This document shows positions 3,592 to 47,352 of a DNA stretch of 64,000 nt, piece by piece. A program made the position numbers and the translations under genes. Numbering within the stretch: the first letter of the stretch is position 1; each line of letters starts with the position of its first letter. The DNA comes from Gammaproteobacteria bacterium (GTDB lineage Bacteria; Pseudomonadota; Gammaproteobacteria; Pseudomonadales; Pseudomonadaceae), in contig JAHJYA010000045.1 of the NCBI GenBank assembly GCA_018826895.1, positions 1 to 64,000 on the forward strand, read 5' to 3'. The notes under the pieces were generated by a model that was given only the letters and a program-made list of their open reading frames with translations, made no database searches and was not told where the DNA came from.

Positions 3592-3650
3592 GCGTGTTGG
3601 ATCGATAGGGATCATTCCGGCAGGCAAGCGCAGGCCGGGGTCTACAAATC

Positions 3651-3796
3651 CCGCTCTCTCTTTATCCGGACTGTAACCGTCGGCCCCGGGATCACACCGG
3701 GTCTGCTGACCTTGCCAGCGTGGCAAGCGCTCGCGGGCTAGACGCGTTGCGCGTCATTACCGCCGGTGGGGAATTGCGCCCCGCCCTGAGAACGTT
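3651..3796 (-). promoter_or_regulatory. FMN riboswitch (RFN element)
   Basis: On the minus strand the conserved blocks of the RFN aptamer occur in order: CTCAGGGCGGGG, AATTCCCCACCGGCGGTAAT, AGCCCGCGAGCG, GGTCAGCAGACCCGG, CCGACGGTTACAGTCCGGAT and a final AGAGAGAG. FMN binding represses riboflavin genes. Here it sits between ribD (ends 3876) and ribE (starts 3484), so it governs ribE-ribBX-ribH-nusB-thiL and not ribD. About 165 bases separate it from ribE; they hold the hairpin and leader frame. Boundaries are good to about 10 bases. Confidence 0.93.
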
Positions 3797-3875
3797 GTGG
3801 CCACCGCAGTGGCCGGTAAGCGTTTTACCACATTTGCCTGCTGGCTGTACCGCACCGCAGACGCTGACCCAGCAG

Positions 3876-5568: not shown

Positions 5569-6042
5569 ATGCTGATCGATCTGAACACCTTTCGCCGCGC
5601 CCTGCGCGCCCTCGCCCTGCTTGGCTTTGCCGCCACACTGCTGGCTTGTTCCAGCGAGCCTTCGCAGCCGCAACCTGCCGCCGTGCCAGTCACACCTGCG
5701 GCCCTCCCGGCGCCAGTCGAGGTGGAAACCGACTACCGCCACGCCCTTAGCGGCCAATTGCTGGATGTGCCAGCCAATGCGGTGGTCGAACTGGCGCTGC
5801 TGCAGGTCGACGAACGCGGCCGCCCCCTGGGCCTGCTGGGTAATATCCAGGTGCGCAGCAACGGCGCCGCCCTGCCCTTTCGCCTGCCGTTCAACCCGCA
5901 GGCAGTGAAGGCCGAGCGGCGCGTCGAACTGCACGGCCGCGCCCATCTCGATGGCCGTTTGATTCTGCGTCTGACGCCGCAAACCATCACTGGTACCGAC
6001 AGCCAGGACCTCGGGGCCCTGCGCCTGGTCAGCGCCCCATGA
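5569..6042 (+). CDS. YbaY-family lipoprotein
   Basis: A 157-residue protein with an N-terminal signal and the lipobox LLAC at about residues 23-26, so it should be lipidated and held in the envelope. The rest resembles the YbaY/META-like beta domain (Gln-rich linker, then a conserved YRHALSGQLLDVPANAVVELALL segment in two parts). Function unknown. The frame is open from 5488, but the ATG at 5569 places the hydrophobic signal correctly. It overlaps the next gene by four bases. Confidence 0.8.
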   Translation: MLIDLNTFRRALRALALLGFAATLLACSSEPSQPQPAAVPVTPAALPAPVEVETDYRHALSGQLLDVPANAVVELALLQVDERGRPLGLLGNIQVRSNGAALPFRLPFNPQAVKAERRVELHGRAHLDGRLILRLTPQTITGTDSQDLGALRLVSAP

Positions 6043-31467: not shown

Positions 31468-32040
31468 ATGAACCTGCGCAAATCCCTTATCGCTCTCGGC
31501 CTGATGCTCAGCCCGGCGCTGGCTTTCGCCCACCCAGGCCATGACCATTCCGGCCTGATGGCTGGCCTGGCCCACCCGGTATTTGGTCTGGACCACCTGC
31601 TGGCCATGCTCGCAGTCGGCCTGTGGGCCGCGCAGCAATCCGGCGCGGCGCGCTGGGCGCTGCCGCTGACCTTCGTCGCCAGCATGCTGATCGGTGGCCT
31701 ACTGGGCTTTGGCGGCCTGGAAATCCCGCTGATGGAAACCGGCATTGCCGCCTCGGTCCTTGCATTTGGTCTGCTGGTCGCGGTGGCCGTGCGCCTGCCG
31801 ATGGTCGTTGCGCTGGGTCTGACCGCACTGTTCGCCCTGACCCACGGCGTCGCACACGGCCTGGAACTGCCGAACCTGGCTAGCCCCTGGACCTATGCCA
31901 TCGGCTTCCTGGTCGCCACTGCAGCCCTGCATGGCGCCGGCTATGCCCTGGTGCGCAGCTTGCCCCGTGCCGCGGCCCCGTTGGTGCGCGTAGCGGGCGC
32001 CGCCTCGGCCCTGACCGGCGTTTGGCTGCTGGCCAGCTGA
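31468..32040 (+). CDS. HupE/UreJ family nickel permease
   Basis: A 190-residue membrane protein with a cleavable signal (residues 1-21, ending AFA), then HPGHDHSG and the metal motif HPVFGLDHLLAMLAVGLWA, and about six helices. HupE/UreJ proteins take up nickel or cobalt. Placed 25 bp after ureG with a strong AAGGAG site, so it supplies nickel to the urease maturation pathway. Hydrophobic throughout; no soluble domain. Confidence 0.92.
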   Translation: MNLRKSLIALGLMLSPALAFAHPGHDHSGLMAGLAHPVFGLDHLLAMLAVGLWAAQQSGAARWALPLTFVASMLIGGLLGFGGLEIPLMETGIAASVLAFGLLVAVAVRLPMVVALGLTALFALTHGVAHGLELPNLASPWTYAIGFLVATAALHGAGYALVRSLPRAAAPLVRVAGAASALTGVWLLAS

Positions 32041-32050
32041 CCCAACGTGT

Positions 32051-32073
32051 GCCCCGGCGTCATGCGCCGGGGC
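32051..32073 (+). terminator. GC-rich hairpin after the nickel permease gene
   Basis: GCCCCGGCG-TCATG-CGCCGGGGC, a 9-bp stem 10 bp after the stop codon, without a following T run. Possible weak or Rho-assisted terminator. Confidence 0.55.
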
Positions 32074-32144
32074 AACGCTGTACAAAAATCACTCAACCGA
32101 CGCTACACCTTGGTACTGCTGGGCTGCAGCGCGACATGCGCAGC

Positions 32145-32521
32145 TTATCCACAGATCGCCCCACAAGCCTCGGGGATAACCCGCCCTGCGACCGCGGCAA
32201 GTGCTTGAATAATCTGCGATTTATCTTGACAGCAGCAACGTGCCGGTAGGCCACCGAATCCTGATCATAAAGTAACCATCCCGCTACAAGCCACGCTGTT
32301 ACTGGGCTGCAGGTAGCTGCCCAATGGTTATCCACAGCCCTGCACACACGCAATGGGGATAAGCGTTGCGCCCCCCCGCTCCCCCACCTGAGATCATCGA
32401 TCAAAAAACAACCAGACAGCGCAACGCCTAGTGCTGCAGAGCCTGCAGCGGCTTGCTCCCATGATATCCACAGCCGGCCCCACAGCGATTGGGGGTAAAC
32501 CGCAACCACCACTGTGAATAA
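32145..32521. promoter_or_regulatory. Cluster of DnaA boxes in three 35-bp paired modules
   Basis: Within the 540-bp gap between ureJ and azurin, a forward DnaA box is followed after exactly 17 bases by a reversed box-like 9-mer, three times: TTATCCACA (32145) with CGGGGATAA (32171); TTATCCACA (32328) with TGGGGATAA (32354); ATATCCACA (32464) with TGGGGGTAA (32490). A further reversed consensus box TGTGAATAA lies at 32513. The first two modules are also preceded by CTGGGCTGCAG at 32119 and 32303. No dnaA, rpmH or dnaN is near, so it is not the standard oriC. A DnaA-titration or reactivation site, or a family of non-coding repeats, is possible. Confidence 0.6.
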
Positions 32522-32533
32522 CTCGCGCCCAGC

Positions 32534-32561
32534 AAAAAGCCGCTTACAAGAAGCGGCTTTT
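32534..32561 (-). terminator. Intrinsic terminator of azurin gene
   Basis: On the minus strand AAAAGCCGCTT-CTTGT-AAGCGGCTTTT, an 11-bp stem followed by T, 19 bp after the azurin stop. Confidence 0.9.
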
Positions 32562-32580
32562 GTCCCTGCAGGCGTCTGGT

Positions 32581-33030
32581 TCAGTCGACCAGTTTCAGAT
32601 TGCCTTTCATCAGCGCGACATGCCCTGGGAAGGAGCAGAAGAACTGGTAGGCTTCGCCGGCAGTCAGCTTGGCGACATCGAAGGTCACCGAGTCAGATTC
32701 GCCACCACCAATCATTTTGGTGTGTGCGATCACACGGGTATCACCGTCTTTCAGGTAGCCCTTGTCCAGGCCGGCACCGATGCCGTCAGCGGCGATGGCT
32801 GGCGCGTCTGCGGTCTTGCTCAGCACCCAGTTATGGCCCATGGAGGCCTTGGGCAGAGAACCCGAATGCTTGAGGTTGACGGTGAAGGTCTTGCAGCTCT
32901 TGCTGACCGCGATCTCTTTGGTATCGAAGGTCATCTGGTCTGTGGCTTGCACATCTACAGCACACTCGGCAGCGAGCAGAGGGGCACTGGAGAGGGCGAG
33001 CAACGATGCGACAACAAACTTGCGAATCAT
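32581..33030 (-). CDS. azu: Azurin, blue copper protein
   Basis: A 149-residue periplasmic electron carrier with a 20-residue signal (ending PLLAA) and a mature domain starting AECAVDVQ. Copper ligands are in order: His in MGHNWVLS, then Cys, His and Met in [14 protein letters not shown]. The disulfide pair is also kept (AEC and SKSC). Azurin carries electrons to oxidases or peroxidases and nitrite reductase partners. A single gene with its own terminator; no ANR box was found in the 200 bp upstream. Confidence 0.97.
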
Positions 33031-34079: not shown

Positions 34080-35000
34080 ATGGCCGGCGCTAGCCTGTTG
34101 ACCCTGCTCGATGACATCGCCACGGTGCTGGACGATGTCGCGTTAATGACCAAAGTGGCGGCGAAGAAGTCCGCGGGGGTGCTCGGCGATGACCTCGCCC
34201 TGAACGCACAACAGGTGACCGGCGTGCGCGCCGATCGCGAGTTACCGGTGGTATGGGCGGTGGCCAAGGGTTCCTTACGCAACAAGGCAATCCTGGTGCC
34301 GGCGGCGTTGCTGATCAGCGCCATTGCCCCCTGGGCCGTCACACCGCTGCTGATGCTCGGCGGCGCCTTTCTCTGTTACGAGGGCTTTGAAAAGCTTGCC
34401 CATCGTTACCTGCATTCCGCCGCCGAAGATACAGATGCAGAGCAGCGCCTGCGTGCGGCAGCGGCAGATGAACACGTCGATCTGGTGGCGTTCGAGCAGG
34501 ACAAGATTCGCGGCGCGGTACGTACCGACTTCATTCTATCGGCCGAGATCATCGCCATTACCCTGGGCATAGTCGCGGGTGCGGCGTTTTTCTCCCAGGT
34601 GGTGGTGCTGGTGGGTATCGCACTGCTGATGACCGTGGGCGTGTATGGCCTGGTGGCGGGTATCGTCAAACTCGACGATGCCGGCCTGTACCTCAGCCAG
34701 CGCGGCAGCAGGTCTGCCCAGGCCATCGGCCATGGCATTCTCGCCACCGCGCCCTACCTGATGAAAACCCTCTCGGTGGTCGGCACCGCGGCGATGTTTA
34801 TGGTCGGCGGCGGCATCCTGACCCACGGCATCGCGCCCGTGCATCACGCCATTGAGCAGGTGGCCGCAGCTGCCGGCAACGGTCTGCTGACGGCCATCAT
34901 CCCCACGCTACTCAGCGCCCTTTTCGGCGTCCTTGCCGGCGCCGTGGTGCTGGCGCTGGTGGGCGGCGGCAGCCGACTATGGCGCGCCGTGCGTACCTAA
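34080..35000 (+). CDS. DUF808 family inner membrane protein (YedI-like)
   Basis: A 306-residue protein starting [20 protein letters not shown], diagnostic of DUF808. The N-terminal 70 residues are soluble; hydrophobic segments follow at about 82-115, 155-200 and 230-300. Function unknown; inner membrane location by family. Convergent with the transglutaminase gene, overlapping it by four bases. Confidence 0.88.
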
Positions 35001-46855: not shown

Positions 46856-47235
46856 CATAACAACAATAACAAGCAATGCATCACACACAATAAAAACAAA
46901 ACGCAACGGCTCTAGCACAATAAGAACAAGACGGCAGAGGCGCAGCTAACTGATTCTTTTGGAGAGGAATGGCTTTTTTGGGGTTCGCCCCACACCAGAC
47001 CGAGAACAATAAAACTGTCCTGAGACAGCACCCGTACTGGTAAGACCGCAAGGTAAAAAGCACTGTCAGCATCCAAAGAAATCCGTTTGCTATTGACTCC
47101 CCTTTGGGAGGTCTCCGGAAGCACGGCGCTTCCAGGAACGGGCAATTCAACAAGAACAACAAGCCCGCAATAACAATAAAATGAAGCACGCATTACTTAG
47201 AGGGGAGCTTAGGCTCCCCTCAGTGCTTTCTGGCG
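46856..47235 (+). ncRNA. crcZ: CrcZ small RNA (Hfq/Crc decoy)
   Basis: Located between cbrB and pcnB, the invariant position of crcZ, and driven by the sigma-54 promoter just upstream. The A-rich AANAANAA motifs that bind Hfq with Crc occur about six times: near 46858, 46890, 46918, 47004, 47148 and 47169 (for example AACAACAATAACAAG and AACAAGAACAACAAG). It sequesters Hfq/Crc and so relieves catabolite repression when poor carbon sources activate CbrB. The end is set by the hairpin at 47201; length about 380 bases is an estimate. Confidence 0.88.
47201..47228 (+). terminator. Terminator of CrcZ
   Basis: AGGGGAGC-TTAG-GCTCCCCT, a perfect 8-bp stem, then CAGTGCTTTCTGG with a short T run. It lies 132 bp upstream of pcnB. 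Confidence 0.75.
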
Positions 47236-47352
47236 TTTGACGCCTGTCTTCCCTCCCGTCCTACACCATCCCGCGACACAATGCTAGAATCCGCGCCACT
47301 CTTGTGGTCAGCGTTTACTTCTGGCCGGTCATTCCGTCAAACAGTGCATCCC

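What the first reader, a model, noticed from the sequence alone, without database searches (positions are those of the whole stretch)
32119..32521. Three evenly built 35-bp DnaA-box modules in a 540-bp non-coding gap
Three forward boxes (two exact TTATCCACA, one with a single change) are each followed after exactly 17 bp by a reversed, GC-shifted box (GGGGATAA or GGGGGTAA). A further reversed consensus box closes the run. The identical spacing argues against chance and suggests protein pairs bound on one face of the DNA. There is no dnaA/rpmH neighbour. A DnaA-titrating (datA-like) or DnaA-reactivating (DARS-like) site, or a structured non-coding repeat family that happens to contain the boxes, would all be new for this locus.
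Basis: partly seen in the sequence, partly recalled or inferred. Interest (0 to 1): 0.7.

Follow-up and report, generated by a model that had tools for sequence, protein, structure and literature searches.

The report
Tandem DARS-like DnaA recharging sites
This gap in a likely Pseudomonas genome holds three tandem copies of a DNA element that matches E. coli DARS1, a site that recharges the replication-starting protein DnaA, and similar arrays lie in a belt around dnaA in related genomes, where they likely help to time chromosome copying.

Summary
Each module, read on the minus strand, is a 35-bp set of three DnaA boxes (I >, 5 bp, II <, 3 bp, III <), the exact geometry of the E. coli DARS1 and DARS2 cores. 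It heads a gapless ~103-bp unit: core, a weak dyad centred at position 65 (same centre in E. coli DARS1), and a Fis consensus at 86-100, met strictly at that column in 55 of 74 units picked by core alone. A profile built without E. coli finds DARS1 (E 1.5e-10) and DARS2 (E 2.9e-5), nothing at datA or oriC. Own genome: 12 strong units at three loci, a 13th by the wider profile. All 53 single-contig genomes searched in the genus have 5-21 units; 291 of the 295 best-scoring (of 653) lie 5-20% of the chromosome from dnaA. I file them as DARS-family elements in a new arrayed, Fis-associated form. DnaA recharging is predicted, not shown. datA-like titration remains the main rival: the belt lies where E. 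coli has datA rather than DARS, and boxes I and II are weak.

The parts
32145..32179 (-). Unit 1 DARS-type core: box III 32145-32153, box II 32157-32165, box I 32171-32179
   Evidence: sequence; geometry compared with E. coli DARS1/2; R2 hit 32076-32179, 60.4 bits
32100..32130 (-). Unit 1 dyad region (unit positions 50-80)
   Evidence: dyad centre 65 in alignment A3
32080..32094 (-). Unit 1 Fis-consensus site (unit positions 86-100), GAGTGATTTTTGTAC
32328..32362 (-). Unit 2 DARS-type core: box III 32328-32336, box II 32340-32348, box I 32354-32362
   Evidence: R2 hit 32260-32362, 62.7 bits
32283..32313 (-). Unit 2 dyad region
32263..32277 (-). Unit 2 Fis-consensus site GGTTACTTTATGATC
32464..32498 (-). 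Unit 3 DARS-type core: box III 32464-32472 (ATATCCACA), box II 32476-32484, box I 32490-32498
   Evidence: R2 hit 32396-32498, 65.7 bits
32419..32449 (-). Unit 3 dyad region
32399..32413 (-). Unit 3 Fis-consensus site GGTTGTTTTTTGATC
32513..32521 (-). Extra reversed DnaA box TTATTCACA, not part of the repeated unit
31468..32040 (+). HupE/UreJ gene whose 3' end faces the array
   Evidence: Pfam PF04955, E 1e-61
32581..33030 (-). Azurin-family gene whose 3' end faces the array (convergent with HupE)
   Evidence: Pfam PF00127, E 6.9e-25

Best explanation
The three modules are DARS-family elements in tandem, each a DARS-type three-box core joined at fixed distance to a dyad and a Fis-consensus site, and they likely recharge inactive ADP-DnaA to ATP-DnaA. 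Shown here: the repeat, the geometry, the gapless unit, the profile match to E. coli DARS1/DARS2, the copy number and the belt around dnaA. Inferred from E. coli work: ADP-DnaA would bind strong box III and weak boxes II and I; the head-to-head contact of DnaA on boxes I and II would loosen ADP; Fis bound about 50 bp away would bend or hold the complex in growing cells; released apo-DnaA would take ATP and raise initiation potential at oriC. Several weak units per array, on both chromosome arms near the origin, would give a dose that doubles soon after each initiation.
For: Box geometry 9-5-9-3-9 with box I opposed, identical to E. coli DARS1 and DARS2 cores; a review names same spacing and opposed box I as the common DARS feature (PMC5742627, passages). 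Gapless 106-bp alignment of 66 units. Degenerate Fis consensus strict at column 86 in 55 of 66 aligned units, next best column 3; shuffled flanks give at most 3. Recount without hand selection: 65 of 86 non-redundant units, and 55 of 74 when loci fetched by gap DNA are left out, next best column 4 in both. In named Pseudomonas/Stutzerimonas units found by a core-only pattern, 75 of 87 at column 86 and 10 of 87 at 87. Profile R3, built without E. coli, hits DARS1 at 36.2 bits (E 1.5e-10) and DARS2 at 19.3 bits (E 2.9e-5), with no hit in 19 kb around datA and oriC; R2, built from the genus alone, hits DARS1 only (E 2.4e-4). Dyad centre 65 shared with E. coli DARS1. 53 of 53 single-contig genomes have units; 291 of 295 listed units lie at 0.05-0.20 from dnaA. 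The array lies between convergent genes; transcription through DARS impairs it in E. coli (PMC5010248, passages).
Against: No binding or ADP-release data. Boxes I and II are weak: against TTATCCACA, box I has 2-3 mismatches in 55 of 66 units and box II 3-5 in 58 of 66, while E. coli DARS1 has strong I and II; part of this contrast comes from my picking units with a model trained on strong box III and CCCC box I. The strict core model R1 does not find DARS1 at all and gives a weak partial hit near datA (E 0.029). The narrower published Fis consensus is met at column 86 in only 23 of 66 and in one of the three window units. The dyad is weak on average (40% complementary positions at centre 65, against 39% at the Fis centre 93 and 34% at the next). 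No IHF consensus in register from -249 to +285 (at most 7 of 86 units at one column with 1 mismatch allowed, 3 of 86 units with an exact site), unlike DARS2. The belt sits nearer oriC than E. coli DARS1 or DARS2. R3 was trained mostly on units found with R2, so it is not a fully independent profile.
Confidence: 0.7

Rival explanations
1. A datA-like or titration belt: the arrays mainly hold DnaA (or drive ATP hydrolysis) after the origin-near region is copied, lowering free or ATP-DnaA.
For: Belt at 0.05-0.20 from dnaA for 291 of 295 listed units, where E. coli has datA (about 0.10 by coordinates); each aligned unit has one near-perfect high-affinity box (box III 0-1 mismatch in 66 of 66, partly by selection); 5-21 units per genome. 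[quoted passage not shown] coli as a titration feature (PMC12371093, abstract and passages).
Against: R2 and R3 find no match in the 10 kb around datA; only the strict core model R1 gives a weak partial hit there (E 0.029). Pure titration does not need an opposed box I, a fixed dyad or a Fis site in register. No IHF site in register, which datA needs.
Confidence: 0.2
2. A DnaA- and Fis-bound control region for the neighbouring genes.
For: DnaA and Fis are also transcription factors (recall; a listed review, PMC8203912, says so for DnaA, abstract start).
Against: Both neighbours point into the gap with their 3' ends; 0 promoter-like sites in 31900-32700; the same unit occurs beside different genes.
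Confidence: 0.03
3. A structured non-coding RNA or generic intergenic repeat that happens to carry DnaA boxes.
For: Many copies per genome; a weak inverted repeat inside the unit; one terminator-like site inside unit 3, at chance level (1 found, 0.9 expected).
Against: RNAalifold finds 0 pairs on A3; no Rfam family above threshold in the gap; the most conserved columns are the DnaA boxes, with the Fis consensus in register; listed copies are confined to a belt.
Confidence: 0.05

Closest known systems
E. coli DARS1 (bioD-uvrB)
   Same: Identical three-box geometry; dyad at the same centre (position 65); profile match over about 91 bp (R3 E 1.5e-10; R2 E 2.4e-4); non-coding.
   Different: Strong boxes I and II and weak III; here box III is strong and I and II weak. 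Here tandem units, a Fis consensus in register (none at that place in DARS1), several loci per genome, nearer to oriC. The strict core model R1 does not reach it.
E. coli DARS2 (ygdT-mutH)
   Same: Identical core geometry; R3 match over 65 positions (E 2.9e-5); DnaA core plus nucleoid-protein sites, Fis among them; a second box cluster of like geometry in the same region (weak R3 hit, E 0.0041).
   Different: No R2 match; DARS2 needs IHF and Fis sites, with IHF nearest the core (PMC4245941, passages); no IHF site in register here.
E. coli datA
   Same: DnaA-box cluster about 10% of the chromosome from oriC.
   Different: No R2 or R3 match; no IHF site in register here; different box order.

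Membership tests
DARS (DnaA-reactivating sequence) | Core of three DnaA boxes with one fixed spacing, box I opposed to II and III | tested here: met
   9-5-9-3-9 in all three window units and in E. coli DARS1/DARS2; boxes I and II are weak here
DARS (DnaA-reactivating sequence) | Sequence relationship to proven DARS | tested here: met
   R3 to DARS1 E 1.5e-10, DARS2 E 2.9e-5; R2 to DARS1 E 2.4e-4, none to DARS2; strict core model R1 misses both
DARS (DnaA-reactivating sequence) | Regulatory flank beside the core | tested here: met
   gapless flank to about position 102 with a weak dyad and a Fis consensus; that it regulates is not shown
DARS2 type | IHF and Fis sites both present | tested here: not met
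   Fis consensus in register yes, IHF consensus in register no within -249 to +285; so not filed as DARS2
DARS (DnaA-reactivating sequence) | Binds ADP-DnaA and releases ADP; raises ATP-DnaA in cells | not testable with these tools
   needs purified proteins and mutants
DARS (DnaA-reactivating sequence) | Conserved distance from oriC, as in E. coli (0.21 and 0.33) | tested here: inconclusive
   distance conserved (291 of 295 listed units at 0.05-0.20 from dnaA) but nearer oriC than in E. coli
datA | DnaA boxes with an IHF site between them | tested here: not met
   no IHF site in register; R2 and R3 do not match datA, R1 gives a weak partial hit
datA | Stimulates DnaA-ATP hydrolysis | not testable with these tools
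   needs purified proteins
Structured RNA family | Conserved paired structure or Rfam match | tested here: not met
   0 pairs; only Rfam hit in 32000-32640 up to E 1 is 18.1 bits against a threshold of 60, outside the units

The most novel reading that the evidence does not exclude
Pseudomonas controls DnaA through a distributed, Fis-gated belt of 5-21 weak DARS units in several mirror-placed arrays 5-20% of the chromosome from oriC, so that recharging capacity doubles soon after each initiation and is read as a copy-number signal, in place of E. coli's two single sites; the same ~103-bp element would be an ancestral replication timer across the class.
Probability: 0.35. Interest if true: 0.85.

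Novelty: new variant of a known kind. Interest (0 to 1): 0.7.

Why it matters
How bacteria other than E. coli's near relatives recharge DnaA is open; the passages read here describe DARS in E. coli and in relatives near it. A tandem, Fis-associated, multi-locus form found in 53 of 53 single-contig genomes examined of the genus, with profile matches in 227 of 274 genomes of the class, would turn DARS from an enteric speciality into a widespread system, and gives defined 106-bp fragments to test.

Tried and rejected
Exact pattern searches undercount: they need near-perfect boxes. Core model R1 was useful for the genus (199 of 199 genomes at the lax E 1) but misses E. coli DARS1. R2 gave nothing at DARS2; only the wider R3 did. 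Nucleotide search with the whole gap found mostly azurin and module-sized pieces: 27 of 57 genomes, own included, at E 0.001, so the gap as a whole is not conserved in that sample. IHF sites were looked for and not found in register. RNA structure: none. The minus-strand ORF 32093-32512 has no Pfam match and is taken as spurious. Three near-identical hits (L019, L020, L022), one of them beside an ORF that I recall as IS3-like, look like a chance palindrome and were left out of the unit alignment. Rows dropped before counts: of 86 non-redundant modules 11 scored under 31 and 9 more were left out by hand, giving the 66 of A3; some A3 units came from loci fetched with gap DNA, so I recounted the Fis test on all 86 and on the 74 not so fetched. 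In one search one 34-base entry was mistyped; that alignment was replaced. Literature: nine searches of the held open library; in those that pair DARS terms with Pseudomonas no title or abstract start among the papers listed (30 of 56) reports DARS in Pseudomonas. Subscription papers, including the original DARS paper, were not seen, and supplements were not read.

Full report
What is there. The gap between hupE/ureJ (31468-32040, +) and an azurin-family gene (32581-33030, -) holds three modules at 32145-32179, 32328-32362 and 32464-32498. Both genes point into the gap, so it is not an ordinary promoter region; a promoter scan finds 0 sites and one terminator-like site at chance level. The window carries CrcZ, an sRNA family that Rfam calls Pseudomonas, and the same units occur in many named Pseudomonas records; the genus of the window is inferred from this.

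Geometry. Read on the minus strand, each module is box I (forward), 5 bp, box II (reversed), 3 bp, box III (reversed): 35 bp. E. coli DARS1 and the DARS2 core have exactly this layout in the sequence fetched here, and a review states that same spacing and opposed box I are the common feature of DARS1 and DARS2 (PMC5742627, passages seen). Allowing any spacer of 10-24 bases, 65 of 70 exact-pattern hits, in 52 of 199 genomes of the genus, are 35 bp long, and the reversed-pattern control gives none. Many of these hits are shared by descent.

A longer unit. A score on the 35-bp core gave 188 modules, 86 of them non-redundant in their flanks. I aligned 66 over 106 bp (11 scored too low, 9 were left out by hand); the alignment has no gaps. 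Beyond the core there is a weak dyad centred at position 65 (40% complementary positions, against 39% at the Fis centre and 34% at the next) and, at 86-100, a Fis consensus. The degenerate form GNNYRNNWNNYRNNC is met at column 86 in 55 of 66 units, at the next best column in 3; with shuffled flanks the best column never exceeds 3 in 200 trials. Since some loci had been fetched with gap DNA, I recounted: 65 of all 86 units, and 55 of the 74 from loci fetched by core alone, with 4 at the next best column in both. The narrower form GnnYAnnnnnTRnnC printed in PMC8682772 (passages) is met at column 86 in 23 of 66 and 28 of 86. All three window units meet the first form and one the second. A Fis site footprinted in P. 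putida, Fis-A7, looks alike (PMC5612765, passages). In core-selected units from named records, 75 of 87 from Pseudomonas and Stutzerimonas meet the first form at column 86 and 10 at 87; outside these genera 4 and 3 of 15. The units show no common RNA fold, and the gap has no Rfam match above threshold. No IHF consensus sits in register from -249 to +285.

Relation to E. coli DARS. Profile R2 (genus units only) finds DARS1 as its single hit in 31 kb of E. coli around DARS1, DARS2, datA and oriC (16 bits, E 2.4e-4). Profile R3, built from 30 units, of which 25 come from genomes or records outside the genus by kinship or label and none from E. coli, finds DARS1 (36.2 bits, E 1.5e-10), the DARS2 core (19.3 bits, E 2.9e-5) and weakly the second DARS2 cluster (E 0.0041), and nothing at datA or oriC. 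Its non-genus members were found with R2 or by a core pattern, so R3 is a bridge, not an independent sample. Against this, the strict core model R1 misses DARS1 and DARS2 and gives a 10-bit partial hit near datA (E 0.029). The dyad of DARS1 (GCAAGC/GCTTGC) has the same centre, 65 (by counting).

Copies and places. By R2 the own genome (88% complete) has 12 strong units: three here, seven on contig C131, two on C88; R3 adds one on C67 (42.5 bits), where R2 has E 0.003. R2 finds units at E 0.001 in 53 of 53 single-contig genomes of the genus searched, 5 to 21 each, 653 in all; the two outputs list the best 295 of these, from 51 genomes. Of the 295, 291 lie at 0.05-0.20 of the chromosome from dnaA; of the other four, one is in G014 and three in G029. 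The 358 weaker units were not listed and not placed. Some chromosome lengths were known only to 0.1 Mb. Among the 51 genomes, 37 have inner arrays on both arms (about -0.08 and +0.10) with box I towards dnaA, 42 have an outer site (about -0.13 or +0.12) of opposite orientation on at least one arm, and 19 show all four among their listed units; overall box I is nearer dnaA in 218 of 295. Two genomes, G182 and G159, look inverted around oriC and keep similar distances. Much of this is shared gene order and not independent evidence.

Where the window lies. Its contig is not placed on a chromosome. PcnB, 15 kb from the array, lies at 0.12-0.23 from dnaA in 35 of 35 genomes given to that call, out of the 53 (median 0.158). 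The three with the most similar PcnB (G137, G163, G184; 87-88%) each carry three units nearby or beside azurin: in G137 about 1 kb from the transglutaminase gene that lies 2.5 kb from the array in the window, in G163 beside azurin but some 215 kb from PcnB, in G184 about 8 kb from a homologue of the window gene at 34080-35000. Their distance to dnaA is about 0.18 (and by arithmetic). G041, next in PcnB identity, showed no unit in the 19 kb fetched.

How wide. In a draw of 274 genomes of the class, own included, R2 has a match at E 1e-4 in 99 and R3 in 227 (188 of 222 genera); R3 includes units from this same draw, and 47 of 274 have none. Passages that I read place DARS in E. coli and near relatives, with a review extending DARS2 to some beta- and gammaproteobacteria (PMC5742627, PMC8682772, PMC5010248).

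Mechanism. I think each unit gathers ADP-DnaA on box III and then on weak boxes II and I, where the head-to-head contact known from E. coli would release ADP, with Fis as growth-phase co-factor. This is inference. The main doubt is that boxes I and II are weak (partly an effect of how units were picked) and that the belt sits where E. coli keeps datA (about 0.10) rather than DARS2 (0.21) or DARS1 (0.33), figures worked out from coordinates. Arrays of units may offset weak boxes. The proposed tests separate reactivation, hydrolysis and titration.

Noticed in passing
L063:814-1945 (own genome, contig C131): Seven tandem units in about 1.1 kb, the largest array of the own genome, next to an ORF that looks like a glycine-betaine oxygenase reductase (name from recall).
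   Followed up: partly
L261:7973-8184 (own genome, contig C88): A pair of units, the third locus of the own genome.
   Followed up: no
G000:C67:47713-47815 (own genome): A unit seen strongly by R3 (42.5 bits) but only weakly by R2 (E 0.003); perhaps a single-copy unit closer to the class-wide type.
   Followed up: no
unit positions 50-80, e.g. window 32419-32449: A weak GC-rich dyad (consensus arms GCTGCAGGCC and GGCNTGCAG) of unknown binder, same centre in E. coli DARS1.
   Followed up: partly
unit positions 36-44: A partly conserved stretch after box III (often NTGTTCGC) that could be a fourth weak DnaA box.
   Followed up: no
L104:4156-4257 and 5869-5970: Two full units in an AT-rich MAG contig labelled Alphaproteobacteria; label or range of the element is in doubt.
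   Followed up: no
G029: The one single-contig genome with listed arrays at 0.35-0.37 from dnaA; a large rearrangement or assembly error is possible.
   Followed up: no
window 46857-47250 and 3649-3797: CrcZ sRNA and an FMN riboswitch, both ordinary.
   Followed up: no
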